A stretch of DNA of 37,683 nucleotides, taken from contig VGQX01000010.1 of assembly GCA_016882305.1 (NCBI GenBank), positions 1 through 37,683 of the forward strand, given 5' to 3'. The stretch comes from Cyanobacteria bacterium K_Offshore_surface_m2_239. GTDB taxonomy: Bacteria > Cyanobacteriota > Cyanobacteriia > PCC-6307 > Cyanobiaceae. The position numbers and the translations under genes were made by a program. Below are positions 11,894-33,367 of this stretch, in pieces (position 1 is the stretch's first letter; every line of letters starts with the position of its first letter). A model generated the notes under the pieces. That model made no database searches. It saw nothing but the letters and a program-made list of their open reading frames with translations, and was not told the origin of the DNA.

Positions 11894-11900
11894 CGACACA

Positions 11901-11914
11901 TGGCAGGATTGCCA
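11901..11914. promoter_or_regulatory. Short dyad in the M16/pcyA divergent intergenic region
   Basis: TGGCA-GGAT-TGCCA is a 5-base-pair inverted repeat within the only 46 bases between the divergent starts. Both genes' promoters must overlap this space or lie inside the opposite gene. The dyad could be an operator, but 5 base pairs is within chance expectation, so this is a weak call. Confidence 0.25.
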
Positions 11915-11939
11915 TTCTGCTGGTCGCTCGCTTCCGCCG

Positions 11940-14877: not shown

Positions 14878-14881
14878 CGCG

Positions 14882-15619
14882 ATGCCGATGCCGATCTCCA
14901 TGCCGATGGCGACGTTGAGCGACGCCACCCCCGCCGTCGCTGTGCAAGGGCTGAACCATTGGTATGGCCGGGGGGCGACCCGTCGCCAGGTGCTCCAGGC
15001 GGTGGATCTGCGGATTCAACCCGGGGAGGTGGTGCTGCTCACGGGTCCCTCCGGCTGTGGCAAGACCACCCTTCTCACCCTGGTGGGGGCCCTGCGGCAG
15101 GTGATGGAGGGATCGGTGCGGGTTCTGGACCAGGAGCTGCTGGGCAGCGGTCGGGGCGACCGGCAGCGGATTCGCCGCCAGATCGGCATGATCTTCCAGG
15201 GACACAACCTGTTGCGCTGCCTGACGGCGGAGCAGAACGTGCAGATGGGGTCCGACCTGCTGCCAGGTCTCTCCTACCGGGCGCGTCGCGACCTGGCCCG
15301 CGAGTGGCTGCGGGCGGTGGGCCTGGAGGACCACATGGGCAAGCTTCCCCATGATCTCTCCGGCGGCCAGAAGCAGCGGGTGGCCATCGCCCGTGCCCTG
15401 GCGGCTGAACCCCGCCTGCTGCTGGCCGATGAACCGACAGCCGCCCTGGATCGGCGCACGGGACGGGATGTGGTGCTGCTGCTGCAGTCGTTGGCCCGGG
15501 AGCAAGGCTGTGCCGTGTTGATGGTCACCCATGACCCGCGCATCCTGGACGTGGCCGATCGCCTCGTGCAGATGGAGGATGGTCGTCTCTGGAGCGCCGA
15601 GCCCGCCCTGGTGGGCTGA
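14882..15619 (+). CDS. devA: DevA-type ABC exporter ATP-binding protein
   Basis: A 245-residue ABC ATPase of the LolD/MacB-like branch. Walker A GPSGCGKTT (55-63), Q-loop Q106, signature LSGGQ (159-163), Walker B LLLADE (179-184), D-loop ALD and switch H217 are all intact, so it should be active. It would power the DevBC complex encoded immediately upstream (4-base gap). The start is ambiguous: the first nine codons contain four ATGs in a run of ATGCCG-like units (MPMPISMPM), at 14882, 14888, 14900 and 14906. ATG 14882 is listed as the first; 14906 would leave MATLSDATPAVAVQGL and a more usual length. Confidence 0.93.
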   Translation: MPMPISMPMATLSDATPAVAVQGLNHWYGRGATRRQVLQAVDLRIQPGEVVLLTGPSGCGKTTLLTLVGALRQVMEGSVRVLDQELLGSGRGDRQRIRRQIGMIFQGHNLLRCLTAEQNVQMGSDLLPGLSYRARRDLAREWLRAVGLEDHMGKLPHDLSGGQKQRVAIARALAAEPRLLLADEPTAALDRRTGRDVVLLLQSLAREQGCAVLMVTHDPRILDVADRLVQMEDGRLWSAEPALVG

Positions 15620-15699
15620 GGCCTGATGCGCGCGCCCGGAGGAGGGGGGAGAGGTCGGTTGGCTAGTGTTGTTCTCATCCATTCAGACGCCTCTCGCGC

Positions 15700-15855
15700 A
15701 TGGCCAAACGCCGCAATCTCAAGAAGGAAAAACAGGAGCGCAATCGCGCCTACGCCCGCAAGTTCAAGAAGCGCAAACTCCGCAACGACGGCCGTGGTGA
15801 AGGGGCTGGCAACGGCGTGACCGGCACCGCCAGCAACGGCGGAGCCGCAGACTGA
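15700..15855 (+). CDS. Small highly basic conserved protein (51 aa), unknown function
   Basis: A 51-residue protein beginning MAKRRNLKKEKQERNRAYAR, with basic residues dominating the first 29 positions and a Gly/Asn/Ala-rich tail. I recall near-identical N-termini in small hypothetical proteins of picocyanobacteria, but cannot search. The charge pattern would suit RNA or ribosome binding; that is inference. It lies 80 bases after devA and is followed, 38 bases after its stop, by a strong intrinsic terminator, so its transcript end is well defined. It is too short for many gene finders. Confidence 0.75.
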   Translation: MAKRRNLKKEKQERNRAYARKFKKRKLRNDGRGEGAGNGVTGTASNGGAAD

Positions 15856-15893
15856 CAACCACCCCGCGGCGCTCCCATCAGGAGCTTCGGGCA

Positions 15894-15920
15894 GGGGGGA
15901 TCCAGCGGATCCCCCCTTTT
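15894..15920 (+). terminator. Rho-independent terminator
   Basis: GGGGGGATCC (15894-15903), loop AGC, GGATCCCCCC (15907-15916), then TTTT. This is a perfect 10-base-pair GC-rich stem with a 3-base loop and a short T-run. It ends the 51-residue protein gene and possibly devBCA transcripts. The next gene's first possible ATG (15923) lies 3 bases after it, which argues for the ATG at 15938. Confidence 0.88.
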
Positions 15921-15937
15921 CCATGCAGGCCCCAGCC

Positions 15938-16870
15938 ATGTTTTTCAGCGTCGTCATCCCCACCTACAACCGTCTGCCGATCCTGCGGAAGTGCCTGCGG
16001 GCCTTGGAAGAGCAGGAGATCTCCGCTCCCGTGCGGGGGTATGAGGTGGTGGTGGTGGACGATGGCTCCAGCGATGACACGGTGCCCTGGCTGCGCGCCC
16101 ACGCCGCGACCCTGCCCCATGTCCGCTTGATCCGCCAGGAGCATGGCGGACCGGCGGAGGGACGCAACCGGGGCGTGCGGGAGGCTCGGGGGGAGGTGAT
16201 CGTGTTCATTGACAGCGATCTGGTGGTGACCCCCACTTTTCTCGCCAGCCACGCCCGAGCCCTGGCGGCAGCCTGGCGTCAGCGGGGCGATCGCCTCTGC
16301 TTCACCTACGGCGCGGTGGTCAACACGGCGAATTTTGACCATCCCACCCGGGAACCCCACAAGCTCACCGATCACTCCTGGGCCTACTTCGCCACCGGCA
16401 ATGTGGCGATCGATCGCGAGGTCTTGGAGCGGGCTGGCCTGTTTGACACCAGCTTCCGCCTTTATGGCTGGGAGGATCTGGAGCTGGGGGAACGGCTGCG
16501 CCAGCTGGGCGTGGTGTTGGTGCGAGCTCCGGAGGCGGTGGGCTACCACTGGCATCCGGCCCTCTCCCTGGAGCAGATCCCGGATCTCCTGAGGGTGGAA
16601 CGGGAGCGGGCGAAAATGGCCCTGGTGTTCTTCCGCAAGCATCCCAGCCGTCGGGTGCGCTTCATCGTTCAGTACACCTGGCTCCATCGTCTGCTCTGGG
16701 AGCTGCTCACCCTCGGGGGGCTGCTCAATGAGCGGAGCCTGCGTCCTCTGTTGGCCTGGCTGGTGCGCCATGGACAGGCCCGCTGGGCGATGGAGCTGCT
16801 GCGGTTGCCCCTCAACCGCCTGGGCGTGCGCGAGCTCTTCGCCGAAGCCCGCCGTCAAGGCCTGCGCTGA
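15938..16870 (+). CDS. Family 2 glycosyltransferase
   Basis: About 310 residues with a GT-A fold. The N-terminal MFFSVVIPTYNR, the nucleotide-binding VVVVDDGSSDDT (37-48), RNRGVREARGEVIVFIDSD with the DxD-type D92-S-D94, and the acceptor-side FRLYGWEDLELGERLRQLG place it in family 2, in the group with a galactosyltransferase-like C-terminal block. Donor and acceptor sugars cannot be told. ATG 15938 is preferred because the earlier in-frame ATG at 15923 lies only 3 bases after a terminator hairpin. It precedes the rpsB leader by 118 bases. No partner polysaccharide genes are adjacent; it may act in cell-surface glycan or glycolipid synthesis. Confidence 0.88.
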   Translation: MFFSVVIPTYNRLPILRKCLRALEEQEISAPVRGYEVVVVDDGSSDDTVPWLRAHAATLPHVRLIRQEHGGPAEGRNRGVREARGEVIVFIDSDLVVTPTFLASHARALAAAWRQRGDRLCFTYGAVVNTANFDHPTREPHKLTDHSWAYFATGNVAIDREVLERAGLFDTSFRLYGWEDLELGERLRQLGVVLVRAPEAVGYHWHPALSLEQIPDLLRVERERAKMALVFFRKHPSRRVRFIVQYTWLHRLLWELLTLGGLLNERSLRPLLAWLVRHGQARWAMELLRLPLNRLGVRELFAEARRQGLR

Positions 16871-16906
16871 TCGTTTGGTAGGTTGGCAAGGTCCATTCAT
16901 CCCACA

Positions 16907-16977
16907 CACCTGCACGTTTCGGGTGATGTCAGCCTTTTTGGGCCGCATCCCTGGCAGGTGGAAGGTCAACCCGAAAC
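16907..16977 (+). promoter_or_regulatory. Interleaved inverted repeats in the rpsB leader (candidate pseudoknot)
   Basis: Two pairs of complementary segments interleave: CACCTGC (16907-16913) with GCAGGTG (16954-16960), and GTTTCGGGT (16916-16924) with ACCCGAAAC (16969-16977). The order a-b-a'-b' is that of an H-type pseudoknot. The 9-base pairing ends 11 bases before the rpsB ATG, so it could control ribosome access. S2 is known to repress its own operon through the 5' leader in E. coli. The pairing is seen directly; autoregulation here is inference, and the 7-base pair alone could be chance. Confidence 0.45.
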
Positions 16978-16988
16978 CCCCCTGAACC

Positions 16989-17699
16989 ATGGCTGTCGTC
17001 ACGCTCGCCGAGATGATGGAGGCTGGTGCCCATTTTGGCCACCAGACTCGTCGCTGGAACCCCAAGATGTCGCGCTATATTTACTGCGCGCGCAACGGCG
17101 TTCACATTATTGATCTTGTGCAGACCGCCGTCTGCATGAACAACGCCTACAAGTGGGTGCGCAACGCTTCCCGCGGTGGCAAACGTTTTCTTTTTGTCGG
17201 CACCAAAAAGCAGGCTTCTGAGGTGATCGCTCAGGAGGCCACCCGCTGTGGCGCCGCCTATGTCAACCAGCGTTGGTTGGGCGGCATGCTCACCAACTGG
17301 AGCACCATGCGCGCTCGCATCGATCGCCTCAAGGACCTGGAGCGGATGGAGTCGTCGGGGGCGATTGCCATGCGCCCGAAGAAGGAGGCCGCTGTGTTGC
17401 GACGCGAGCTGGATCGCTTGCAGAAGTATCTCGGTGGCCTGAAGACCATGCGCCGCCTCCCCGATGTGGTTGTGCTTGTCGATCAGCGACGTGAGACCAA
17501 CGCCGTTCTCGAATGCCGCAAGCTGGACATTCCCCTGGTGTCCATGCTGGACACCAACTGCGATCCGGATCTCTGCGACGTGCCGATTCCTTGCAACGAT
17601 GACGCGGTGCGTTCGGTGCAGCTTGTTCTCGGCCGCCTGGCCGACGCCATCAACGAAGGTCGCCACGGCTCCCAAGATCGCACCGAGGAGGAGGGCTGA
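16989..17699 (+). CDS. rpsB: 30S ribosomal protein S2
   Basis: A 236-residue S2 protein, needed for late 30S assembly and S1 binding. Recognisable parts are [20 protein letters not shown], the [19 protein letters not shown]-like block at 25-40, [26 protein letters not shown], and [20 protein letters not shown] then the [11 protein letters not shown] block near the C-terminus. Length is normal. Start ATG 16989 gives the canonical [13 protein letters not shown]. tsf follows after 55 bases, the classical rpsB-tsf order. A candidate regulatory structure lies in its 118-base leader. Confidence 0.97.
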
Positions 17700-17754
17700 G
17701 CCCTCTATTCTTCAGACTTTTTTCGATTGTCATCCGCTTCCCTCCACCTTTCCC

Positions 17755-18414
17755 ATGGCTGAGATCAGCGCCAAGCTTGTCAAAGACCTGCGCGACAAAA
17801 CGGGCGCAGGCATGATGGATTGCAAAAAAGCCCTCAAAGAAACCTCCGGCGACATCCCCAAGGCCATCGAATGGCTGCGGCAGAAAGGAATCGCCAGCGC
17901 GGAGAAAAAAGCTGGCCGCACCGCCGCTGAGGGCATGGTGGGCAGTTACATTCACACTGGCGGTCGCGTGGGAGTCCTGGTCGAGGTGAACTGTGAAACC
18001 GACTTCGTGGCTCGTGGTGACTTGTTTCAAGAACTTGTTCGCAACGTGGCCATGCAGATCGCGGCCTGTCCCAATGTGGAATACGTAAGCGTGGATGAGA
18101 TCCCCGAAGCGGTTGTGGAGCGGGAAAAATCCATTGAAATGGGACGGGATGATCTGGCCGGCAAGAAGGAGGAGATGAAAGCCAAGATCGTTGAAGGTCG
18201 TATCGGCAAGCGATTGAAAGAATTGGCTCTCCTTGACCAACCCTTCATCCGCGACAACAGTCTCACGCTGGGTGAGCTTGTGAAGCAAACCTCCGGCAAG
18301 ACAGGCGAAAACATTCGCGTGCGCCGTTTCACCCGCTACACCCTGGGCGAAGGGATCGAGGTGGAAGAGAGCGATTTCGCCGCCGAGGTCGCCGCCATGG
18401 GCAAGGCGGCCTGA
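17755..18414 (+). CDS. tsf: Translation elongation factor Ts
   Basis: A 219-residue EF-Ts, the nucleotide exchange factor for EF-Tu. The N-terminal UBA-like module [22 protein letters not shown], the core TDFVAR-type motif in [16 protein letters not shown] (the TDF motif that reaches the EF-Tu Mg site) and the C-terminal [15 protein letters not shown] are present. This is the short cyanobacterial/chloroplast-like form with one core repeat rather than the about 280-residue E. coli form. ATG 17755 is the canonical start ([10 protein letters not shown]). The next gene starts with GTG one base after the tsf stop, so at least tsf and that gene are coupled. Confidence 0.97.
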
Positions 18415-18415
18415 G

Positions 18416-19540
18416 GTGGGGGAGCCTGCCGGTTCCGCCTCCCATCCCCTCGGAGCACTCCAGGCCAGTCTGGAACAGCAGATTCCTCAGCTCTACCGCG
18501 AACTGGCCCTGTATCTGCAAGTCCTGCGCGAGGTGCTTCCCGCCAGCCTCGATCAGGCCTGCGCCACCCTCGCCACCCAGGTGCATCCCCGGCGTTACAA
18601 CCGCCTGCCGCCACGGGTGCGGCAACAGTTGCATCTCCGCCTGAAACGGCTCGTCGACAGTTGTTGTTCCTTGCTCACTGTGGAACAACTGCAGGGTCTC
18701 GCCAGCCAGATGGCGCGGGAACGTCAGCGTCTGGCGTTGCGGGCCCTGGCTGGGGCGGTGGGCGAGGGCGAAGAGGAGGAGGACGAGAGCGAGAGCGAGG
18801 GTGAGGAGGACGAGGCTGAGGCGTCGGAGGTGGAGTCGGAACGGGCGTTTTCGGAGGCCTCGGCCTCCTCCCTCCCCCAGGGTTCGGTCCAGCTCAACCT
18901 GGCGCCTCCCCTCTCCACCTCCTCCTTGGCTTGGGCACCCCTTCGGCCGGACTCCACGCCGTCAGAGCGCTCCGCTGACGGTGAGTCGGAGGACGACACC
19001 CCTCCTTGGGTCGCCGCCTGGATCGCGGAAGAGCTCTCCACCTCGATCGACGGCTCGTCCACGGGGGAGACGCTCTGGTCCGAGGGCCAGCTCCCCAGGG
19101 ATCCGGTGCGGCTGTTGCACTGGCTGGAGGGTCTCGACGTGGCCCTTCACCGTCGCCTGCGCAACCTCTCCCATGGCGCCAACATCGAGTTGACGCGCGC
19201 CGGGCTGCTCCCCGCCGTGCTGCCTGTGCGCCTGATGGATTCCGTGCTCAGCGGCCAGATCGAATCCCATGGCGCCCCGCCCAATCTGTTGCGCCTGCCG
19301 CTGCTGCCCCATGAGGCCGGCCGCCATCTCCATGCTCCCCTCGGCGTGCTGCTGCGCACGGTGGATCTGGAAATGGAACAACCCCGGCTGCGCACCTGCC
19401 GCCAACGGCTCCTGCGGCGGCGCCAGGAGATTCTCAAAATGGCGGAGTCTTACCAACGCCTGCAGCATCGTCTTCAGGTCCAAAACGCCGAACGCCTGTG
19501 GCGTCACGACAGCCAGCTGAACCCGTCCGAGGGGATCTGA
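18416..19540 (+). CDS. Conserved-context hypothetical protein with acidic linker
   Basis: A 374-residue protein I cannot assign to a named family. Residues 1-115 look helical (LEQQIPQLYRELALYLQVLR onward) and contain an Arg-rich patch; residues about 120-150 are a run of Glu, Asp and Ser; about 150-210 is Ser/Pro-rich and probably disordered; about 225-374 is again helical (LLHWLEGLDVALHRRLRNLS, then a basic coiled-coil-like C-terminus). It starts with GTG one base after tsf and ends 43 bases inside the recG frame, so it is embedded in a translation/recombination operon. I recall proteins of this kind between tsf and recG in picocyanobacteria. The two-domain layout with a flexible acidic linker suggests a scaffold or nucleic-acid-associated protein, which is inference. 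Confidence 0.75.
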   Translation: MGEPAGSASHPLGALQASLEQQIPQLYRELALYLQVLREVLPASLDQACATLATQVHPRRYNRLPPRVRQQLHLRLKRLVDSCCSLLTVEQLQGLASQMARERQRLALRALAGAVGEGEEEEDESESEGEEDEAEASEVESERAFSEASASSLPQGSVQLNLAPPLSTSSLAWAPLRPDSTPSERSADGESEDDTPPWVAAWIAEELSTSIDGSSTGETLWSEGQLPRDPVRLLHWLEGLDVALHRRLRNLSHGANIELTRAGLLPAVLPVRLMDSVLSGQIESHGAPPNLLRLPLLPHEAGRHLHAPLGVLLRTVDLEMEQPRLRTCRQRLLRRRQEILKMAESYQRLQHRLQVQNAERLWRHDSQLNPSEGI

Positions 19541-23234: not shown

Positions 23235-23410
23235 CGCGGCGAGCCAGATGTGTGGCGTTGAGGCATTGTGACGGTTGACGCAAGCGGTCCGAGGCCCGTG
23301 CCACGGTCCACGGAGGTCACCCGGTCCAGAGCGTCCGCGCCCTTCAGCGCTTCCAAGCTGTCCACGCTTCCATAAAGTCACAGCAGCTCACCTGCGCCTT
23401 GGCGCCCTGG

Positions 23411-25588
23411 ATGGCCTGTTTTGTGTTGGAGATCGGAACGGAGGAGTTGCCGGCGGACTTTGCTCGCCTGGCCCTTCCCCAACTGGAGCGCCAGCTGCGC
23501 GAGGACCTGGCGAGCTGCCACCTTCCCTATGACTCGCTGAGCGCCACGAGCACGCCGCGCCGGCTGGCCGTGCGGGTGGAGGGCTTGCCACCGCGCCAGG
23601 AGGATTCCCTCCAGGAGCACAAGGGGCCACCCGCCCAGCTGGCTTTTCGGGATGGCAAGCCCACGCCGGCAGCGGAGGGTTTTGCCAAACGTTGCGGCCT
23701 GACGGTGGACCAGCTGGAGGTCCGCGAGACCGCAAAAGGCCCGTTCGTTTATGCGTGTACCCGCCAACCGGGCCGGGAGACGGCTGAGGTGTTGGCGTCC
23801 TTCATTCCCGGCTGGATCTGGGGTCTCCAGGGGCGTCGTTTCATGCGGTGGGGGTCAGGAGAAAGCCGGTTCAGCCGGCCTGTTCGCTGGTTGGTGGCCC
23901 TGCTCGATCGGGAGATCATCCCTGTGGTGCTCGCGGAGTGCGATCCACCCATTCGGAGCGATCGCTTGACCCGGGGCCATCGCCTTCGACCGGAGGTGGT
24001 GTCCATTCCCGCCGCCGGAAGCTACAGCGACATCCTGGAGGCGGCGGATGTTCAGGTGGATCGCGGCGCTCGGGCGGCCCAGATTCGCCTGCAGCTGGAG
24101 GCGGCTGCGCACGAGCTTGGTGGCTGTCTGGATCTGCCGGAATCGTTGTTCGAAGAGCTGGTTGATCTTGTGGAACATCCACGGGTCATCACGGGCCTGA
24201 TTGACAGTGCCTTCCTGTCCCTGCCTCCAGAGGTGCTCAGCACGGTGATGCGAGCCCATCAACGTTATGTGCCGCTCTTGACCTCGGAAGAGCCCAGCGA
24301 TCCCTTGTCACTGAGCGCTGAGGGGACGCTGCTTCCCCGTTTTCTCTGCGTGAGCGATGGACTGGCGGAAGCTGAGGCCACGGTGAAGCGCGGCAATGAG
24401 CGTGTGCTGCGCGCCCGCCTTGCTGATGCGGCCTTCTTCCTCAAGGCTGATCATGCGGTTCCCAGCATTGATCGCCGGGAAGCTCTGGCGCATGTCACCT
24501 TTGCCGAAGGCTTGGGCCATCTGCTGGACCGCACTGAACGCCTTGAGTGGTGCACCGATGTCTTGTTGGAGTCCCTCAGCGTGCCGGAAGAGGCGGCTCC
24601 CGTCGCTCGACGGGCCGCCCATCTCTGCAAGCATGATCTGGTCAGCCAAATTGTGGGTGAATTTCCTGAGCTGCAGGGGATCATGGGAGCCAAGTATCTT
24701 CTTTCTGAGGGAGAGAAGGAAGATGTTGCCCAAGCCGTTTTCGAGCATTATCGTCCCCGTGGCGCTGGAGATGCTCTCCCCGATTCCGCAGCCGGTGCGG
24801 TTGTAGCTCTGGCTGAGAGACTCGAATTATTGCTGAGCATTTTCTGCAAAGGCGAAAGGCCGAGCGGCTCGTCTGATCCCTATGGCCTCAGGCGTGCTGG
24901 AAATGGCATCTTTCAAATCCTCTGGCATCAGGATTGGGAACTCGACCTTGCCAAGATGTTGGCTCGCGGTGCCACCCGCTGGCAGAGCTTATTTCCCTCC
25001 TTCAAGATAGAGCCTGGTCAACTTCTGGATGATCTTACAGACTTTTTCCAGCAGCGCTTGGCGAGTCTTCTTGAGGAAGATGGCTTCGATCCCGACATTG
25101 TGCGTGCCATTGTCAGTCGATCTCAAGGTGTTCAGAATGGCATTCAGAATGGCATTCAGAATATTCGTGATGCTCGTGATCGATCTCAGTTGCTTCAATC
25201 CCTTAGAAGCAAAGGACAGTTGGCCCCGATCCAGGCTGCTGTCCAGAGAGCTGCACGCTTGGCTGACAAGGGCGACCTATCACGGCAGATCCTTTCCCCG
25301 GATGATGTTGTTGATCCCAGCCTCTTTGAACGTCAAAGCGAAGTTTGTCTCCTGCAGATTCTACAAAAACTTCGTGAGCCAGCCCAAAGTATTGAGCGAA
25401 AAAAATACACTCAACTAGCCCAAGGATTAGAAGAGAGTTCAGCAGTTCTATCCGCTTTCTTTGATGGCTCAGATAGTGTCATGGTGATGTGTGATGATCT
25501 TGACCGCCAAAAAAACCGTTTGCATTTATTGAGTGTTCTCAGGAATCAAGCAAACGTGCTGGCACGCTTTGAAGAATTGGATAGTTAG
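23411..25588 (+). CDS. glyS: Glycine--tRNA ligase beta subunit
   Basis: A 725-residue beta subunit of the heterotetrameric glycyl-tRNA synthetase; it binds tRNA-Gly and works with GlyQ, which is not in the window. The N-terminal FVLEIGTEELPADF, MRWGSGESRFSRPVRW, LVEHPRVITGLIDSAFLSLP and VLRARLADAAFFLKAD are signature blocks, and DPYGLRRAGNGI marks the catalytic-like helical domain. The C-terminal anticodon-binding-like part is present and in frame. ATG 23411 (MACFVLEIGTEE) is preferred to the TTG at 23399. Two oddities: GC content falls from about 72% (one line near 23.6 kb) to 40% (line 25381-25440), and a 12-base tandem repeat adds NGIQNGIQN near residue 575-583, where the family usually has a short linker. 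The gene appears intact. Confidence 0.94.
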   Translation: MACFVLEIGTEELPADFARLALPQLERQLREDLASCHLPYDSLSATSTPRRLAVRVEGLPPRQEDSLQEHKGPPAQLAFRDGKPTPAAEGFAKRCGLTVDQLEVRETAKGPFVYACTRQPGRETAEVLASFIPGWIWGLQGRRFMRWGSGESRFSRPVRWLVALLDREIIPVVLAECDPPIRSDRLTRGHRLRPEVVSIPAAGSYSDILEAADVQVDRGARAAQIRLQLEAAAHELGGCLDLPESLFEELVDLVEHPRVITGLIDSAFLSLPPEVLSTVMRAHQRYVPLLTSEEPSDPLSLSAEGTLLPRFLCVSDGLAEAEATVKRGNERVLRARLADAAFFLKADHAVPSIDRREALAHVTFAEGLGHLLDRTERLEWCTDVLLESLSVPEEAAPVARRAAHLCKHDLVSQIVGEFPELQGIMGAKYLLSEGEKEDVAQAVFEHYRPRGAGDALPDSAAGAVVALAERLELLLSIFCKGERPSGSSDPYGLRRAGNGIFQILWHQDWELDLAKMLARGATRWQSLFPSFKIEPGQLLDDLTDFFQQRLASLLEEDGFDPDIVRAIVSRSQGVQNGIQNGIQNIRDARDRSQLLQSLRSKGQLAPIQAAVQRAARLADKGDLSRQILSPDDVVDPSLFERQSEVCLLQILQKLREPAQSIERKKYTQLAQGLEESSAVLSAFFDGSDSVMVMCDDLDRQKNRLHLLSVLRNQANVLARFEELDS
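25131..25162 (+). repeat. 12-base tandem repeat inside glyS
   Basis: TTCAGAATGGCA occurs at 25131-25142 and 25143-25154, followed by the partial unit TTCAGAAT (25155-25162). Being a multiple of three it keeps the frame and encodes the repeated tetrapeptide QNGI. This looks like a recent slippage expansion in a surface loop of the glycyl-tRNA synthetase beta subunit. Confidence 0.9.
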
Positions 25589-26006
25589 CTCAATTTCTTT
25601 TCAACGTGTCAACCAAATATTGTTCAGAAAATGGTTCTTCCACCACGGATGAGACTTCAAAATATTCTTGCTTACGCCTGCGATTTCTAAACAGAGCTGT
25701 GCGAAAGAGAAGAAGAAAGAGCCTGATACGTAGTTGACGAGAGAGCAAGCAGCCCTTAGGGCGAATTTCCTTTTCTGGAGTAAGGATTGATTAGTCCCAT
25801 AACTGGTATTAAGCGAACCCATGGAGAAATTGATGCATATTGGTTGGTCTTGCCTGAGGCAACCTGCCAGCATTATTGCTTGTCAAACAGCGTAGTTTAA
25901 TGTCAAAACCTGTTGAATGCAGTATGTGATTTTTAGTCGGCACAAAATAAAAGCCTGGAACGTCTTCTTGACGTCTATTGATATGTTCTTTGACAATAGT
26001 CTTTCT
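25589..26006. other. Gene-free AT-rich intergenic region between glyS and the methyltransferase gene
   Basis: Both flanking genes end here (convergent), so no promoter is required. I see no tRNA, no intrinsic terminator with a T-run, and no convincing coding frame; the open frames present (for example a 90-residue one on the minus strand, 25601-25873) start and stop at random points and have no family features. Two short dyads occur, TTGCC-TGA-GGCAA at 25850-25862 and ACGTC-TTCTT-GACGT at 25960-25974, both weak. It may contain decayed gene sequence. Confidence 0.5.
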
Positions 26007-26738
26007 CTATTCTATCTTTTTGGCAGAGACAAAAACCGAGCAGCCAGTCGGGAACGAAGCACCTCTTTGCAGCCAGGCCTGTTCAAGTTGGGCGATCCCG
26101 CCAAAGAGACTTTCAATCATTGACGGATAGGTTTGAACATCGCTGGTCGCATGACTTGGTGGGAAAATTTTTCGACGAGCTATGATCATCGGAAAGACGA
26201 ACATATTCGCATAAGAAGCTTGAAGTGGCAGAAGCCCGAAGGATCTAATCATCTTGACAAGCTCGCTCCTTCGATAGCGATGCTGAGTTTCACAAGTGTC
26301 ATCGTGGTATGACCACATCCACTGATAAGCGGCCACATTGATGACAAGCACACCATTGGGGCGCAGAACGCGAGCAAACTCTTTGATGGCTGAAGTTCCA
26401 TCTTTGACTTGTGAAATGACATCTGCGCATGTGAGGATATCAAAGCTCTCTGTGGCAAAAGGGAGTTCGGTGATGGAACCTTCCACGATGTCTGCGCGAG
26501 TGGTTTCCCTTGCATAGGCGCAGGCTATTGGTGAAAAATCAAGACCAGTGATGGACCAATCCGGCGAGTATTTCTGAAGGGCACGAATTAAACCTCCAGT
26601 TCCACAGCCTGCATCCAACACCTTGGCGGGTTGACCTCTCCACGAGTCCAGAGGTATGAGCATGCGACGATTGAGAGTATGGAAATACCACATCCTATCC
26701 TCGGTTTCTGCCAACTTACGGTACTCATCAATGTGCAT
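26007..26738 (-). CDS. Class I SAM-dependent methyltransferase
   Basis: A 243-residue Rossmann-fold methyltransferase. Motif I is VLDAGCGTGG (40-49), the acidic ribose-binding Asp is in SITGLDFSPIA, motif II region FDILTCADVISQV, and motif III LRPNGVLVINVAAY. The N-terminal MHIDEYRKLAETEDRMWYFH and the C-terminal SLFGGIAQLEQAWL then FPTGCSVFVSAKK match a subfamily often annotated only as class I methyltransferase. It is the last gene of a three-gene unit with a polyprenyl-phosphate-type GT2 and a GtrA-family protein, so a methylated sugar or lipid-linked glycan is a reasonable guess. The ATG at 26738 lies 151 bases inside the gtrA reading frame. Confidence 0.85.
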   Translation of the reverse strand: MHIDEYRKLAETEDRMWYFHTLNRRMLIPLDSWRGQPAKVLDAGCGTGGLIRALQKYSPDWSITGLDFSPIACAYARETTRADIVEGSITELPFATESFDILTCADVISQVKDGTSAIKEFARVLRPNGVLVINVAAYQWMWSYHDDTCETQHRYRRSELVKMIRSFGLLPLQASYANMFVFPMIIARRKIFPPSHATSDVQTYPSMIESLFGGIAQLEQAWLQRGASFPTGCSVFVSAKKIE

Positions 26739-27190
26739 GGCGTTTTAAGATTGAAGTTGTTCCGGAATGATGTGGACAGAGCCGATTTTTTTTCCTTAGA
26801 TCGGTATAAAACTTTTGTGAGAAGATAGGAGATGATAGCCCAGAATGCATACGTAACGAGGGCGATCACCCACTTATTTGTTCCTATTTTATCAAGAAGC
26901 AATCCAATGAGGAAGGCGACAGCAAAGCCTAGTAATTGGATTTGTAGATAGCCAAGAAGCAGGCGCCACGTAAACTTAACCCGGAAGGTGACGCGAGAAT
27001 GAGTGTAAGCATTTGAGAGAATACAAATTCCGCCAGCGATAGCTAGGCTTGTTGAGGTATTATTTGTAAAATTCAGAACTAAACCATAAAGAAGAAAATA
27101 GAGGGCTTCTCCAAACAAGGCAACCAAGCCAAAACGAATAAATATAAACTTAATGACTGGAAAGGATTGAAGCCACTCGGAGTTGTTCAT
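26588..27190 (-). CDS. GtrA-family polyprenyl-phosphate-sugar flippase-like protein
   Basis: A 200-residue protein whose first about 135 residues form four membrane helices of the GtrA type: FIFIRFGLVALFGEALYFLL, then SLAIAGGICILSNAYTHSRV (with the typical NFxxxRxxxF-like end TFRVKF), LLGYLQIQLLGFAVAFLIGL, and WVIALVTYAFWAIISYLLTK. GtrA proteins are thought to flip lipid-linked sugars across the inner membrane. The start ATG 27190 overlaps the GT2 stop by 4 bases (ATGA). The family normally ends soon after the fourth helix, at KVLYRSKEK here, but this frame continues about 60 residues, the last 50 overlapping the methyltransferase gene in another frame. That tail has no recognisable features and probably reflects loss of an earlier stop. 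Confidence 0.82.
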   Translation of the reverse strand: MNNSEWLQSFPVIKFIFIRFGLVALFGEALYFLLYGLVLNFTNNTSTSLAIAGGICILSNAYTHSRVTFRVKFTWRLLLGYLQIQLLGFAVAFLIGLLLDKIGTNKWVIALVTYAFWAIISYLLTKVLYRSKEKKSALSTSFRNNFNLKTPCTLMSTVSWQKPRIGCGISILSIVACSYLWTRGEVNPPRCWMQAVELEV

Positions 27191-28182
27191 ATTGTACTCA
27201 TGACGTGAAGCGATTGTGCTTTCACAGGACTTTTCATCTTTCCATACCAAGCCAAGTTTCGAATGTGGGCCTGCGGTTTGCCAGAGACCGTGAGGTAAAT
27301 CCGTCCTATATATTCACCAACCATACCAAGCAATAAACATTGGATGCCTCCAAAGAAAAGGATTGATGAGATCACTGAGGCCCAACCAGCTACATCAAGA
27401 CGCCCGAAGAGGGAGCTGATCAATATATAAGCCAAGCTTACAGCTCCAATCAGGGAGGCACCGATGCCAATTAAGCTTGCAAAGCGGAGGGGCATTAAGG
27501 AAAAGCTAGTGAGAATCACTAGCCAGAGGCGCACCAACCGACGTAAATTGTAACCACTCGAACCCGCATCTCTTGGGTCGTGACGAACATCCAAGCTACC
27601 AATTCTGGTTGTGACTTGCGAGAGTAAGCCATCGAGGTAAACGTAGGGACCATTGATGCAGGTGATTTTCTCCGCAACCAAGCGCTTGACACAGCGGAAG
27701 CTGGATAAGTAATAAGAATTAGGCAGATCCAGGAGCCAGCGTGCCGTAAGTTTGGCGAAAACGCTGCCAAGATTGCGAAAAATATTGTGTTTCTTGCAAA
27801 TATGGTTGCCATATGTCACGTCAAGATCGTTGTCTTTGGCATAGTCCAAGAGGCGGATCGCTTCTTCTGGCGGATTCTGAAGATCGTCATCAATGTTGAT
27901 GAAATACTCGCCTTCGGCATGACGATAGCCCGTGAGGACGGCCTGATGTTCACCAAAATTACGAGTATGTCTGATCACCACGGCGTTTAATGGAGATTTG
28001 TTGAGTCGTCGGCAGAGAACGTTATAGCTTTGATCGGGGCTGCCATCATCGATGAAAATGGCTTGCCAGGCAGAGTGAAAGTCGAGGCCCTCCAAACGCG
28101 TCACCAATTTATCAATTGTCTCCTCACTGCGATATAGAGGGACGATCAGGCTGAAGGAAAAAGGGGATGATTCAGTCATCAT
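27187..28182 (-). CDS. Family 2 glycosyltransferase, GtrB/ArnC-like
   Basis: About 331 residues: a cytoplasmic GT-A domain followed by two membrane helices. LIVPLYRSEETI, FIDDGSPDQS, HTRNFGEHQAVLTGYRHAEG, NIDDDLQNPPE (the DxD region) and the C-terminal VGEYIGRIYLTVSGKPQ are the signatures of polyprenyl-phosphate glucosyl/mannosyl transferases that load undecaprenyl phosphate. Helices are near LIGIGASLIGAVSLAYILIS and VISSILFFGGIQCLLLGMVG. The start is uncertain: ATG 28182, 28179 or 28221 are all possible; the conserved domain begins about 8 residues after 28182. It overlaps gtrA by 4 bases. Its product and GtrA should form a load-and-flip pair. Confidence 0.88.
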   Translation of the reverse strand: MMTESSPFSFSLIVPLYRSEETIDKLVTRLEGLDFHSAWQAIFIDDGSPDQSYNVLCRRLNKSPLNAVVIRHTRNFGEHQAVLTGYRHAEGEYFINIDDDLQNPPEEAIRLLDYAKDNDLDVTYGNHICKKHNIFRNLGSVFAKLTARWLLDLPNSYYLSSFRCVKRLVAEKITCINGPYVYLDGLLSQVTTRIGSLDVRHDPRDAGSSGYNLRRLVRLWLVILTSFSLMPLRFASLIGIGASLIGAVSLAYILISSLFGRLDVAGWASVISSILFFGGIQCLLLGMVGEYIGRIYLTVSGKPQAHIRNLAWYGKMKSPVKAQSLHVMSTI

Positions 28183-28717
28183 CACGTCGGATAAGCGGTA
28201 GGAAGGCGCGGAAGATGTCATCGCTTCTTGCCCGACGTTTGGATGTTGGCATCGCGATGAGAGAGACCACCTGGACGTTGGCAGGCAAAGTGCTGAGATC
28301 GGCGCAATGAAGCGGCTTGTGCGGGGATTGAAAGGGTTGACATAGAAAAAGATCTGAAGTGCTGGGACGGGCAAAAACCCACTGGATCAACACATCAGAA
28401 CGTTTGGTTCACGGGTGGACCCATGCCAAGGCGCTCCCCATTTCCCTCATTGTAACCCAATTTACGTACGCGTCTCTGCCGTCCTTCTGTTTGTGGCCAG
28501 TCTCGCGTCTGTCTTCCGGGACTCTTCCTGTCGCGCGTTATCCCGTCCCCTTGGGAATGTCTAGGGCCTGGAGCTCGCCAGATGATCTGCCAGCCTAAGT
28601 CTCGCCTGTCCCTTTTTGGTCTTGATCGGAGTGTCTGCGCTGCGGGGAAGGGGCTGCCGGGAATCTGGGGGTGCTTGGTGTCTGTGAGTCAAAAACGCGC
28701 GAGGACGCCGACGTCGG
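28183..28717. other. Gene-free region between kaiC and the GT2 operon
   Basis: About 500 bases separate the kaiC stop from the GT2 start on the same (minus) strand. The region should contain the kaiC transcript end and the promoter of the GT2-GtrA-methyltransferase unit. A TTGACA hexamer occurs on the plus strand near 28337, without a -10 partner. A palindromic CCGACGTCGG lies just after the kaiC stop and a T5 run (minus strand) follows it, but the stem is too weak to call a terminator. I see no convincing coding sequence, RNA gene or repeat. Composition rises to about 58% GC here (line 28561). Confidence 0.45.
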
Positions 28718-30259
28718 TCAGCTGTCTTCTACACCTCTAACAATCCTGGAAAGCTCACTGCGCTCATCGGTGCTGATCCGATGCGGAACACCACTAATGA
28801 TTCGCTCAAAATTGGTGAAGGAATCTTTGATTTCCGGCCCGTTGCCTGTAATGACAAACTCGCGAATCCCCTTGTCATGCCAGGAGCCTCGCATCTTGAA
28901 AACGTTGAGGGCGCGCGCCATTTCTCCGCGGATCTCCACATATTGCAACAGTAAAATGGTGTCGGTTATCGTCGAGATATGCGAATCGGTGATGGAATGA
29001 CTACCCATGAACTCTTCGGAAGTATTTGTAAAAAAGCCGGCAATCTCTTCTTGCTTTGCATAGCCCGTTACTCCGATAACAAATTGACGAAAAGCATTGT
29101 GGCTAACGCCGCGAGCCAGCGCAGATAAAGAATCTATGGCCATTCGTGAGGGTTTGAACTGGCTGATTTCTGTTTTGATGATTTGTAGATGATCCTCCAA
29201 CCCTGTTGACTCCGGATAGGCGCAGATGATCTTCAGCAAGCCATCCTGTTCCATCTGCTCGAAATCAATGCCCCAGCTCGTGGCATTGCGAAGGAGTTGC
29301 GCTCGGGATTCCTCGTAGGCGAAAAGGATGGCCCGCTCTTTACTCCGACAGGCATCCTCAACAAACTTGCTGACAAGAAGGGTCTTGCCGGTACCCGTAG
29401 CGCCTGTGGCCAGGATGATGGAATCTTTAAAGAAGCCTCCTCCGCACATCTCGTCCAGTCTCGGGACACCAGAGCTCAAGCGAACATTGGAAGATCGTTG
29501 CGTCAGGCGCATGGCGCCCAGTGGGAAGATGCTGACTCCATGGCTTCCCATTGTGAAGGGGAACTCTCCCTTCATATGTGTCGTCCCACGCAATTTCAGA
29601 ATCTCGACCGTCCGCCTTCTTCGTTCTCCCTCGAGAACATTTCTGAGTATGACCACATTGTCTGAGACGAATTCCTCAACTCCATAACGGGCAATTGGTC
29701 CGTATTCATCGATGCGCTCTGTGGTCATGACTGTGGTCACGCCGATTTCTTTCAGACGGGCGATCAAACGAAAAATTTCACGCCTGACCACAGAGATGGC
29801 ATCATATTGCTGAAAAACCGCTGTGATGGAGTCGATGGCGACCCGCCGTGCCTTGTATTTGCGAATAGCATAATTAATGCGTTCAATCAGTCCAGATAGA
29901 TCGAAGCTGCCTGCAACATCTTGTCCATCTGGGTCGGGTGAGGCATCCAGCAGGAAAAGTTTGTCTTGCTCCACCATGTCCTGGAGATTCCAGCCAAAGC
30001 TGGCGGCATTTCTTAAAATATCTAGAGGCGATTCTTCAAAGGTGACAAAAATGCCGGATTCGTTAAAGTCTCTAATTCCATTATAAAGAAAATTAAGTGA
30101 GAAAACTGTTTTGCCAGTTCCTGAGGTTCCGCTGATCAACGTCGAACGGCCAATCGGTAATCCCCCGTGACAGATGTCATCAAAGCCCTCGATGCCGGTC
30201 GGCAGCTTCTGGACCTGGGCGAGGGTGTTGGAGGAGGTATGGAGATTGGGTTCCTGCAT
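28718..30259 (-). CDS. kaiC: Circadian clock ATPase/autokinase KaiC
   Basis: A 513-residue double-RecA-domain clock protein that forms hexamers and cycles through phosphorylation with KaiA and KaiB. CI has Walker A GTSGTGKT (44-51) and catalytic Glu pair in TFEES (E75-E76); CII has Walker A GATGTGKT (286-293) and YEES (E316-E317). The phosphorylation sites are S429 and T430 in ITDSHISTITDT, equal to S431/T432 of S. elongatus, with the T426 equivalent at T424. The C-terminal A-loop and tail (FERIISGVPHRISTDERSEL) that bind KaiA are present, which fits a KaiA-containing clock. ATG 30259 is the canonical start area. kaiB ends 48 bases upstream; the order kaiA-kaiB-kaiC is standard. Confidence 0.98.
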   Translation of the reverse strand: MQEPNLHTSSNTLAQVQKLPTGIEGFDDICHGGLPIGRSTLISGTSGTGKTVFSLNFLYNGIRDFNESGIFVTFEESPLDILRNAASFGWNLQDMVEQDKLFLLDASPDPDGQDVAGSFDLSGLIERINYAIRKYKARRVAIDSITAVFQQYDAISVVRREIFRLIARLKEIGVTTVMTTERIDEYGPIARYGVEEFVSDNVVILRNVLEGERRRRTVEILKLRGTTHMKGEFPFTMGSHGVSIFPLGAMRLTQRSSNVRLSSGVPRLDEMCGGGFFKDSIILATGATGTGKTLLVSKFVEDACRSKERAILFAYEESRAQLLRNATSWGIDFEQMEQDGLLKIICAYPESTGLEDHLQIIKTEISQFKPSRMAIDSLSALARGVSHNAFRQFVIGVTGYAKQEEIAGFFTNTSEEFMGSHSITDSHISTITDTILLLQYVEIRGEMARALNVFKMRGSWHDKGIREFVITGNGPEIKDSFTNFERIISGVPHRISTDERSELSRIVRGVEDS

Positions 30260-30307
30260 GGACGGGGAGATGAGGGGGCAAGGAAAATGGACGTGTCAAC
30301 AGGTCTG

Positions 30308-30703
30308 TCAGGATGTTTCCATGGGGCCTGAGGCCTGGTCATCCCGGGATTGATCCCTCGTGTCGTCAGGAACGGAATCAGCAGAGGTTTCTTCGAGATT
30401 GAAGCTCTCGTCAACCAACTCTTCGTAAAGAAGATCGAGGCCGATGAGCACACGTTCGCGGTCAGAGAGGTCGCCGATGATCCGGCGCACTGGTGGTGGA
30501 AGAATTTTGGCGAGTGTGGGGGTGGCAAGGATTTTATCTTCCTCGGCAAGCTGGGGATTTTTCAAAACATCGATCACTTTCAGCGCATAGACACCACGAA
30601 ACTCGGTTTCAAGAATGTTGCGTAAGGTCTTCAATGCTCGCATTGAATTTGGTGTGTTTCCGGCAACGTAAAGCTTGAGGATGTAGGTTTTGCGGGCAGG
30701 CAT
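30308..30703 (-). CDS. kaiB: Circadian clock protein KaiB
   Basis: A 131-residue fold-switching thioredoxin-like protein that binds the KaiC CI ring, sequesters KaiA and signals to SasA and Cik[41 protein letters not shown] and [23 protein letters not shown] are strongly conserved. It is about 30 residues longer than the 102-residue S. elongatus protein because of an acidic C-terminal tail rich in Asp, Glu and Ser (from about residue 98). ATG 30703 follows the kaiA stop by 2 bases, and AAGGAG inside the end of kaiA supplies its ribosome-binding site, so kaiA and kaiB are translationally coupled. Confidence 0.97.
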
Positions 30704-30705
30704 GT

Positions 30706-31566
30706 TCAGACGGACTCCTTAAGAAAATTGTGTGAGCCGATTCTGGATGGGATGGGTCTGTCGGGCGGGATGGATCGGCGATACATCTCACAGAGATGGG
30801 CCATCACGTCCAACAGGGCTAATCGATAGTCTTGCAGGAAATCGTTTTTATGTCCTTCCAGTTTAAGCTGTTTCCAGAAGCCATCAATCAAATTCATGTG
30901 AATCTCAACAGTTGTTGTGATGGGTAGATCGGCAAAAAATGCTGTGTTGACAAAGCTTTCCAGGGCTTGATTGGCTGCTGCTGGATCTCGGAAGTAACTC
31001 ACGAGCAGGTCGCGGTAGGTGCGCGTCAGGGATCGCACCAGCTCCTCCCGTTCCGTTTCCGGCAAATGACGATAAAATCGTTCAGGATCGCGTTTATAAT
31101 AAACTCCCAGGTAGCCAAGTCGATCCTTGAGGCGATTGGCCAATTTCCAGCGTTCTTCCGTATCCGCCGGCGATCCCGCCGCGAGGCTCCCGCCACGCAG
31201 CAGTCCTCGTCGAATGAACCGCGAAACGGCCGCATCCAGGCTGTAAGGCAGTTGCTCAAGCTGATCCGCTGGCAGATGCACCTCGGCATCGTGATACTCG
31301 ATGCGTCCGGTGACCTCGCCGATCACGACCGCCGGCAGGAGCAACTCCCGGGCGCGCAGGGCCTGATAAATGTCTGGTGACAACGCTCCTTGCTCGAGCA
31401 GCACGGCATCCAGCTCCTCGCGACAAGCGCTGAGGGCGGCGACGGGATCGCTGCTGTCCGCCATGGGCACCAGGGCGTAGCGGCCGGATTTCAGCCAAAG
31501 GGAGCTTGCCTCTTGCAGGTCCGGGGAGCGCAACAGGCTGGCAATCGTCAGGGCGGGATCACGCAT
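30706..31566 (-). CDS. kaiA: Circadian clock protein KaiA
   Basis: A full-length 286-residue KaiA, which stimulates KaiC autophosphorylation by binding its C-terminal A-loop. The N-terminal pseudo-receiver domain covers about residues 1-135 ([31 protein letters not shown]-type strands), and the C-terminal four-helix dimer/KaiC-binding domain about 170-280, including [34 protein letters not shown] and [23 protein letters not shown] 31566 gives [16 protein letters not shown] content falls within the gene from 68% (N-terminal codons) to 37% (C-terminal codons). It is divergent from rplU across 153 bases. Presence of KaiA separates this organism from Prochlorococcus, which lost it at this same locus next to rplU. 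Confidence 0.96.
30713..30718 (-). promoter_or_regulatory. Ribosome-binding site of kaiB inside kaiA
   Basis: On the minus strand the end of kaiA reads AAGGAGTCCGTCTGA, then AC, then the kaiB ATG. AGGAG is complementary to the 16S anti-Shine-Dalgarno and sits about 9-10 bases before the kaiB start. Few other genes in the window have so clear a site; it settles the kaiB start and suggests coupling with kaiA. Confidence 0.7.
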
Positions 31567-32453: not shown

Positions 32454-32486
32454 GCCGGGCGTTCCTCGGGTCCAGGGGGCTCCACG

Positions 32487-33367
32487 GTGGTGATCTGCGG
32501 CTTTCTGGCTCTCGACAAACCCGCGGGCCCCAGCTCCCACAGCTGTGTGGCCCTCATCCGTCGAGCCTATGGACTCAAGCGGGTGGGCCATGGGGGCACC
32601 CTCGACCCAGCCGTCACCGGGGTTCTGCCCATTGCCCTCGGACCAGCCACGCGGCTCCTGCCCTATCTCCCCGGGGAGAAGGGTTATTCCGCCACGGTCC
32701 AGCTGGGAGTGCGCACCAGCACCGATGACCTGCAGGGCACAGTCCTGTCTCGTCACGACCTCCCCGCCGCCCTTCACGCGTCTGATCTGGAGGCCGCCTT
32801 GGAGTCCTTCCGGGGGCCCATTCAGCAGCGACCGCCAGCGGTGTCCGCCGTGCATGTGGATGGCCAGCGGGCCTATTCGCTCGCTCGCCAGGGAAGACCT
32901 CCCGTCCTGGCTCCTCGCCCCGTCACGGTGCATCAGCTCCAGCTGCGGCGCTGGGATCCGGAGACGGGCCAACTCGACCTCGAAATCTTCTGTTCCGCCG
33001 GCACCTACATCCGCTCCTTGGCCAGGGATCTGGGGAGATTCTCGGCTGTGGCGCCGCCCTCGCCTGTCTCCGTCGCACGCGTGCCCTGGGCTTCTCCCTC
33101 AGCCAGTGCGTCTGCCTGGAGGAGGTGAAACAGGTCCCACCGGTTCCGCTCGACCCCTTGGCTGTGCTCACGCACCTCCCGCGCCACGATCTGAACGCCG
33201 CAGAGCTGGAGGGGTGGCGTTGCGGTCGCGCCTCTCGGTCGATGGACGATTGGCCCCCGGGCGCTTCTGTCCTGATGGTGGGCCCGGATGGCAAGCTGGC
33301 GGGGTTGGCGGCCGTCGAGGACGGTGGAATCTTGCGTCCCCGTTTGGTGTTCGAGGCTCGCGGTTGA
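32487..33367 (+). pseudogene. truB: tRNA pseudouridine-55 synthase TruB, broken by a one-base frameshift
   Basis: TruB makes pseudouridine 55 in the T-loop of tRNAs. The first frame (32487-33128) gives LALDKPAGPSSHSCVALIRR, the catalytic-Asp motif GHGGTLDPAVTGVLPIALG (D40) and CSAGTYIRSLARDLG, then turns to nonsense after about residue 183. Another frame resumes the normal sequence at once as EILGCGAALACLRRTRALGF, then SLSQCVCLEEVKQVPPVPLD, and runs to the stop at 33367. Restoring one G in the run GGGG at 33032-33035 joins the two into about 293 residues, a normal TruB length. Either this is a true mutation or a homopolymer sequencing error. The rest of the gene has no other damage, which favours error or a very recent mutation. 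Start is GTG 32487 or the next GTG 32490. Confidence 0.9.

What the first reader, a model, noticed from the sequence alone, without database searches (positions are those of the whole stretch)
24600..31200. GC valley with edges inside glyS and kaiA that carries kaiBC and a glycan operon
Sampled 60-base lines fall from 72% GC (23581) to 40% (25381) and 33% (25981), stay low through kaiC and kaiB, and climb inside kaiA from 37% (30841) to 48%, 58% and 68% (31381). The borders do not match gene borders. Acquisition by homologous recombination through conserved flanking genes would make such in-gene mosaics, so part of the clock cluster and of a tRNA synthetase could come from a lower-GC relative. 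Regional mutational bias (for example near the terminus) is the main alternative.
Basis: partly seen in the sequence, partly recalled or inferred. Interest (0 to 1): 0.62.

Follow-up and report, generated by a model that had tools for sequence, protein, structure and literature searches.

The report
Rearrangement joins two GC-poor gene blocks
In a freshwater-type cyanobacterium, a chromosome rearrangement appears to have put the circadian clock genes next to a tRNA-synthetase gene with three sugar-coating genes between them, making one AT-rich stretch; the clock side of it is mostly inherited, while the tail of the synthetase gene has changed only in this lineage.

Summary
The GC valley is real: 48.6% over 25-31 kb, against 64.8% (sd 4.6) in 559 kb sampled from the same genome. 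It is a composite. (1) The kaiABC dip, including the edge inside kaiA, is shared: kaiA falls 5'->3' in 33 of 33 relatives read, kaiC GC3 lies below its flanks in 49 of 62 loci, 5 of 62 deeper than here. Kai proteins are ordinary for the genus, so imported clock genes are not supported. (2) gt2-gtrA-mt is an accessory cassette, found in 5 of 41 congeners away from kaiC and glyS. (3) In 38 of 41 congeners glyS lies 2.5-7.2 kb from typA, with chlP between; here that block, itself GC-poor, is on another contig, and glyS is joined through the cassette to kaiC, an order seen in no relative checked. (4) The glyS 3' decline is private (GC3 -32 points; 36 relatives mean -0.5, sd 3.6), fits a slope better than a step, and goes with fast AT-ward protein change; no donor appeared among 388 genomes of the class. 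I favour in-place erosion beside the junction; a patch from an unsampled picocyanobacterium remains possible.

The parts
23399..25588 (+). glyS (glycyl-tRNA synthetase beta subunit); GC3 per 60 codons falls from 85% to 35% along the gene; residues 540-727 unusually divergent
   Evidence: TIGR00211 665 bits; GC3 blocks; slope versus step; identity by segment
24660..25588 (+). private eroded 3' part of glyS (about residue 420 to the end)
   Evidence: GC3 of residues 540-727 minus 5-400: -32.3, against mean -0.5 sd 3.6 in 36 relatives; FYMINK residues 16%, genus mean 8%, maximum 13%
25589..26006 (.). glyS-mt intergenic, 40.7% GC, convergent; junction side 1
   Evidence: single copy in own genome
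26007..26738 (-). SAM-dependent methyltransferase (mt) of the accessory cassette
   Evidence: PF08241; 67-74% identical in 5 of 41 congeners
26747..27193 (-). GtrA-like membrane protein
   Evidence: PF04138, 26.3 bits against a cut-off of 26.1; 56-63% identical in the same five
27187..28185 (-). glycosyltransferase family 2 (gt2)
   Evidence: PF00535; 69-71% identical in five congeners
28186..28717 (.). gt2-kaiC intergenic, 57.3% GC; junction side 2 (nblS stands downstream of kaiC in most relatives)
28718..30259 (-). kaiC
   Evidence: TIGR02655 1033 bits; GC3 55%, GC12 47%
30308..30703 (-). kaiB
   Evidence: TIGR02654
30706..31566 (-). kaiA, with the inherited GC edge about codon 90
   Evidence: PF07688 and PF21714
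31720..32133 (+). rplU, high-GC flank, conserved neighbour of kaiA
   Evidence: TIGR00061

Best explanation
The valley is a composite made by a rearrangement. The kaiABC block is an old GC-poor block of these picocyanobacteria: KaiC composition keeps GC12 near 48%, and GC3 is usually lower than in its neighbours. In this lineage the 3' side of kaiC has no nblS, the 3' side of glyS lost its usual neighbours chlP-typA-lptB (themselves GC-poor here), and the two are now joined through an accessory gt2-gtrA-mt cassette (shown by gene order, given a correct contig). The glycan genes probably modify cell-surface sugars (inferred from their families). The last ~1 kb of glyS then drifted, or had already drifted, towards AT in place, changing codons and amino acids gradually towards the junction (inferred from the slope, the composition and the lack of a donor). 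The clock genes were not imported.
For: kaiA GC falls 5'->3' in 33 of 33 relatives and GC3 in 29 of 33. kaiC GC3 is below its flanks in 49 of 62 named loci, 5 of 62 deeper than the window. KaiC, KaiB (1-102) and the KaiA C-half are as similar to the genus as its members are to one another (ratios 0.997, 0.999, 0.997). glyS and typA are on one contig 2.5-7.2 kb apart in 38 of 41 congeners, with chlP after glyS in 27 of 29 loci read, the other 2 ending at glyS; in the window genome chlP-typA-lptB-lptFG is on contig C15 with GC3 44-53 (families). nblS begins within 1.7 kb of kaiC in 73 of 80 named kai loci and is on C78 here. The three-gene cassette is elsewhere in 5 of 41 congeners. Junction sequences are single-copy. 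glyS GC3: a linear model beats one step by 8.3 and two steps by 3.8 AIC units. The best non-self match of the GlyS C-term among 388 class genomes is a congener, 51%. It is also further from other families than an ordinary congener is (43.0 against 47.8% over 26 genomes, lower in 25).
Against: The window kaiA step (-25 GC3 points) is deeper than in any of 33 relatives, so something private deepened the kai side too. In relatives glyS holds its GC to the end (36 scored, largest GC3 drop 9.4 points) although GC-poor chlP follows, so inheritance does not explain the glyS slope. A deep unsampled donor would also give equal distance to all relatives; the extra distance is larger within the family than to other families on raw identities (11.7 against 4.8 points), and only roughly equal after a gamma correction (1.01 against 0.74). 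Absence of nblS after kaiC is not private: 8 of 29 genus loci outside the window lack it, 2 are too short to tell. In kaiA a step fits slightly better than a slope. The genome is a 343-contig assembly, so a mis-join cannot be excluded, although no repeat was found at the junction.
Confidence: 0.6

Rival explanations
1. Homologous import limited to the glyS side: a DNA piece with the cassette and the 3' end of a donor's glyS recombined into glyS, leaving a hybrid synthetase gene.
For: The glyS 3' decline is private. GlyS 540-727 is 48.6% identical to the genus, against 68.4% among the others. Its fourfold-site composition matches the cassette (p=0.39) and differs from kaiBC (p=0.006).
Against: Composition matches chlP+typA equally well (p=0.43). 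A slope is preferred to one or two steps. No donor among 388 genomes; equally far from the genus (48.8%) and from 9 other family loci (49.6%). In the five congeners with the cassette, glyS is not beside it.
Confidence: 0.25
2. Import of the whole tract (glyS 3' end through kaiA) from a lower-GC relative.
For: GC is low throughout, and some congeners have a GC-poor kaiC (GC3 44-49 in G020, G023, G037, G038, G041).
Against: glyS is in none of the 80 named or 29 genus kai loci outside the window, within the bases held. Those GC-poor congeners are not shown as sisters of the window in the kaiA or recG trees, and glyS of G023 and G041, the two read whole, keeps high GC. kaiBC and glyS 3' differ in fourfold composition.
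Confidence: 0.05
3. Assembly artefact: contig C10 wrongly joins a glyS contig to a kai contig.
For: Fragmented assembly (343 contigs, 3.33% contamination); the order is unique among relatives checked; truB nearby is split by a frame change.
Against: GC is low on both sides of the cassette; the junction sequences are single-copy with no repeat longer than 23 imperfect bases; the end of C15 shares only 11-12-base matches with the window.
Confidence: 0.1

Closest known systems
Accessory genomic islands of picocyanobacteria
   Same: Patchy three-gene glycan cassette, GC-poor relative to its surroundings, in 5 of 41 congeners; genomic islands of gained genes are a described feature of marine picocyanobacteria (PMC7522525, passages read)
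   Different: The GC-poor tract runs on into two core loci (glyS 3' end and kaiABC) that are not part of the cassette
Within-genome GC heterogeneity explained by GC-biased gene conversion (Lassalle et al. 2015, PMC4450053, abstract read)
   Same: Links a gene's GC content to recombination in bacteria and offers it as a cause of uneven gene composition within genomes
   Different: Recombination was not measured here; the slope lies inside one gene
Non-optimal codon usage of kaiBC (Xu et al. 2013, Nature; not held; known here from passages of the review PMC3676770)
   Same: kaiBC use more AT-ending codons than tsf and rplU of the same genome, and kaiC GC3 is below its flanks in 49 of 62 named loci
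   Different: Codon optimality was not measured against tRNAs, and chlP, typA and lptB show the same drift, so it is not special to the clock

Membership tests
   kaiA edge in 33 of 33 relatives, kaiC GC3 dip in 49 of 62; only the glyS part is private
   glyS is near typA in 38 of 41 congeners; glyS in none of 80 named kai loci
   Neither half of GlyS has a supported sister; end branches 0.47 and 1.13
   glyS: linear AIC 898.5, one step 906.8, two steps 902.3. In kaiA one step is slightly better than linear (358.0 against 362.5), but relatives have a like edge
Accessory glycan cassette / genomic island | Patchy presence, low GC, variable place | tested here: met
   All three genes together in 5 of 41 congeners, gene GC 54-67% in loci of 65-67%, not beside glyS or kaiC there
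Accessory glycan cassette / genomic island | Mobility genes, tRNA or direct repeats at the ends | tested here: not met
   No tRNA in the window, no long repeats, no integrase among the 10 proteins scanned
Replication-terminus composition effect | GC-skew switch at the site | tested here: inconclusive
   Skew is weak; 20 stretches of a single-contig congener show no clear switch near kai or glyS

The most novel reading that the evidence does not exclude
Breaking and rejoining a bacterial chromosome leaves a local zone in which the GC-maintaining force is lost, so that AT-ward change spreads gradually from the junction into the neighbouring essential genes and speeds up their protein evolution. 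Here it would have remodelled the C-terminal third of glycyl-tRNA synthetase and deepened the clock-gene dip. A hint: of 26 genus genomes scored (window included), all five with a kaiC GC3 deficit beyond 20 points are among the nine without nblS downstream of kaiC; but two of the nine (G007, G021) have deficits under 5 points, two non-genus loci (L066, L067) keep nblS with deficits of 25-26, and the tree offers too few independent events to test it.
Probability: 0.22. Interest if true: 0.55.

Novelty: new variant of a known kind. Interest (0 to 1): 0.3.

Why it matters
A GC valley with borders inside genes is easily read as imported DNA. Here the comparison with relatives shows that one side is inherited, that the two sides were not neighbours before, and that only one gene end needs a special explanation. 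If the glyS slope is in-place erosion next to a junction, it gives a natural case for asking what keeps GC high in these genomes, and whether rearrangement changes the evolution of essential genes nearby.

Tried and rejected
Replication terminus: GC skew of 20 stretches of a single-contig congener (G002) is too weak and noisy to place it; not settled. Codon selection for high expression: rejected for the valley, because tsf and rplU keep 4-6% A at fourfold sites and 69-85% C-ending twofold codons, while kaiBC, glyS 3', the cassette, chlP and typA have 17-20% A and 30-47% C-ending; against this, G-ending K/E/Q codons in tsf (46%) are as low as in the valley. Phage origin of the valley: no match of 25000-28700 in 50,697 phage records; in viral contigs 3 stretches matched a pattern from gt2 but none encodes a relative. 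Decay of glyS to a pseudogene: rejected; the frame is open, tRNA_synt_2f is full length (598 bits; 597-619 in 7 relatives) and a DALR domain just under its cut-off is seen as in 2 of the 7. Reciprocal inversion: nblS (C78) and the CNNM gene found after glyS in some relatives (C63) are on separate contigs, so the matching junction was not found. Wider relatives of the cassette: gt2 also has 55-61% relatives in ten more congeners, five of them with a distantly related methyltransferase (29-34%) beside it, and mt has 53-58% relatives in three more; these were not counted as the cassette.

Mended after checking: the protein rows behind searches carried up to 20 residues translated upstream of the start, so residue numbers and the GC3 part are shifted by 20 for GlyS (one search had allowed for it). 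repeat the identities, the GlyS GC3 difference and the two GlyS trees with the true start, and the report uses those; conclusions did not change, but the low value for the N-half of KaiA (0.83) became 0.905. The recG, kaiA and kaiC trees were not repeated. My truB comparison is void because the query was read across the frame change seen. One search used an arbitrary family only to obtain the genome handle. Association of missing nblS with depth of the kaiC dip: p=0.0005 (6 against 66 named loci) and p=0.005 (9 against 17 genus genomes) without tree correction; only 3 changes on the tree, so not claimed.
Full report
WHAT THE WINDOW IS. The window is contig C10 (37,683 bp) of a 3.52-Mb, 343-contig genome (95.6% complete, 3.3% contamination). 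Forty-one other genomes are held from its genus. The 80 named loci closest in KaiC include Cyanobium, Synechococcus and Vulcanococcus, and some lie on contigs of the same lengths as genus genomes, so I take the genus to be Cyanobium-like (inference). In the recG, glyS and kaiA trees the window genome is a long lone branch; it pairs with G028 in kaiA (support 83, not starred) and in the 5' part of glyS (42, weak), and no starred set of up to half the rows holds it.

OBSERVATION. The valley is 48.55% GC over 25.0-31.0 kb. In 36 readable sample stretches of the same genome (559 kb), 6-kb windows average 64.8%, sd 4.6, minimum 49.9. The genome is very uneven. Of five other valleys that I looked into, three hold glycosyltransferase genes (C17, C3, C5), one a DUF2326/ABC-3C pair (C11), and one core genes, chlP, typA, lptB and lptF/G (C15).

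THE KAI SIDE IS INHERITED. In 500-bp bins most of the named high-GC kai loci dip over kaiBC (by eye). KaiC GC12 averages 48.8% in 62 relatives and is 47% here, so part of the dip is amino-acid composition. Over the 62 of 80 named loci with all genes scorable, kaiC GC3 minus flank GC3 (truB, rplU) averages -8.5 and is negative in 49; the window is -24.4, and 5 of 62 are deeper. The in-gene edge of kaiA exists in 33 of 33 relatives by GC (mean -6.8) and 29 of 33 by GC3 (mean -7.5); the window is the deepest (-13.5 and -25.4). KaiC, KaiB (residues 1-102) and the C-half of KaiA are ordinary genus proteins (identity to the genus over identity among the others 0.997, 0.999, 0.997; KaiA N-half 0.905, the lowest of 34). 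So there is no sign that the clock genes came from outside; their dip was deepened.

THE GLYS SIDE IS PRIVATE. In the 17 relatives whose four 500-bp bins inside glyS could be read, all bins are 62-75% GC; the window has 67, 63, 59, 51. GC3 of residues 540-727 minus residues 5-400 is -32.3 in the window, against a mean of -0.5 (sd 3.6, minimum -9.4) in 36 of 41 relatives (5 dropped as incomplete). Per 60 codons GC3 runs 85, 73, 78, 73, 65, 65, 67, 47, 62, 38, 48, 35; a straight slope fits better than one or two steps (AIC 898.5, 906.8, 902.3). The protein changes with it: residues 540-727 are 48.6% identical to the genus, against 68.4% among 38 others; residues 420-540 68.9 against 80.9; residues 5-365 63.9 against 71.0. 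AT-coded residues (FYMINK) are 16% against 8% (range 5-13), GC-coded residues (GARP) 24% against 37%. The 3' tree has an end branch of 1.13 against 0.47 for the 5' tree, with a composition warning. The gene is open and its main domain scores as in 7 relatives.

NO DONOR. Among 388 genomes of the class (own included; 369 with a match) the best non-self match of the C-terminal part is a congener at 51%, and the following ones are congeners or of the same family; the first of another family is 44%. It is equally far from 39 congeners (48.8%) and from 9 loci of other genera (49.6%), which are 58.1% identical to the congeners on average (those 9 were picked as best matches of the window, so the 49.6% leans high). 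Compared with an ordinary congener (G017), it is further from 12 of 12 other genera of the family (48.0 against 59.7%) and from 25 of 26 genomes of other families (43.0 against 47.8%) (16 of the 26 were taken from the top of the window's own list). After a gamma correction the added distance is 1.01 and 0.74: nearly what extra change on its own branch would give, but a deep unsampled donor is not excluded.

GENE ORDER: A PRIVATE JUNCTION. In congeners glyS is followed, directly or after variable genes, by chlP(-), a VanY-like gene, typA, a small gene, lptB and lptF/G: chlP is seen after glyS in 27 of 29 loci read (the other two contigs end at glyS), and glyS and typA are on one contig 2.5-7.2 kb apart in 38 of 41 (not in G027, G037 and G038, because of contig ends or no typA match). 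In the window genome this block is on contig C15, with GC3 48, 44, 47 and 53 for chlP, typA, lptB and lptF/G. The same block is mildly GC-poor in relatives: chlP GC3 is below recG in 24 of 24 scored, typA in 14 of 19, lptB in 12 of 13. On the other side, nblS follows kaiC within 1 kb in 70 of 80 named loci and within 1.7 kb in 3 more; in the genus it is found after kaiC in 19 of 29 loci, is absent in 8 and cannot be judged in 2. In the window genome nblS is on contig C78. So the lack of nblS is not private, but the junction is: glyS occurs in none of the 80 named nor the 29 genus kai loci outside the window, within the bases held. Between the two lies gt2-gtrA-mt. Five of 41 congeners have the same three genes in the same order at 56-74% identity, about 92-103 kb from kaiC in G002, G015 and G032 and on other contigs in G005 and G011, with gene GC of 54-67%. 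G028 has rlmN and rpoC2-rpoC1 after kaiC.

MECHANISM. Shown, if the contig is right: the junction, the inherited kai dip, the private glyS slope, and the accessory nature of the cassette. Inferred: a rearrangement, perhaps helped by insertion of the cassette at a naturally variable site after glyS, joined the two regions; near the junction the balance between AT-ward mutation and GC-restoring processes shifted. GC-biased gene conversion is a candidate for the latter (PMC4450053, abstract), but I measured no recombination. The drift raises both A and T at fourfold sites and is unlike the codon choice of tsf and rplU. The glyS 3' fourfold sites resemble the cassette (p=0.39) and chlP+typA (p=0.43) more than kaiBC (p=0.006), so the slope may be older than the junction with kai. 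Non-optimal codons of kaiBC are a reported property in Synechococcus elongatus (review passages in PMC3676770); that may explain part of the kai dip but not glyS, chlP or typA.

WHAT IS NOT SETTLED. Whether the glyS tail eroded in place or was pasted in from an unsampled lineage; whether the deepening of the kai dip is caused by the junction (hint only); the position relative to the terminus; and, with a fragmented assembly, the junction itself until reads are seen. I searched the open library for Cyanobium with GC content and kaiC, for picocyanobacterial low-GC islands, for kaiA with rplU and gene order and for breakpoints and GC; no title in those listings (the last one showing 8 of 252 papers) is about this locus.

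Noticed in passing
window 32463-33364: truB is split between two reading frames that overlap at 33017-33035, with both parts matching relatives' TruB: a frameshift, or a sequencing error.
   Followed up: partly
L181 (G028) 11206-18551; L005, L012, L017, L019, L023, L034, L069 downstream of kaiC: The gene pair kaiC-nblS, kept in most picocyanobacteria, is missing in 7 of 80 named loci; on the kaiA tree of 26 genus genomes its state changes at least 3 times; in G028 kaiC is followed by rlmN, rpoC2 and rpoC1.
   Followed up: partly
L212 (own genome contig C15) 470-7623: A second core-gene GC valley in the same genome: chlP-typA-lptB-lptF/G with GC3 44-53, the usual neighbours of glyS in the genus.
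   Followed up: yes
interval after glyS in L161-L180 and L234-L246: The glyS-chlP interval varies from almost nothing to about 5 kb with different genes (CNNM transporter, an ABC ATPase): a variable insertion site in the genus.
   Followed up: no
L209 (own genome contig C11) 1974-4954: An ABC-3C C-terminal domain protein (PF20279) beside a DUF2326 protein in a low-GC stretch, perhaps a defence system.
   Followed up: no
window 25133-25162: The private part of GlyS holds a short internal repeat (QNGIQNGIQN, residues 579-588) at a four-residue insertion relative to the relatives shown.
   Followed up: no
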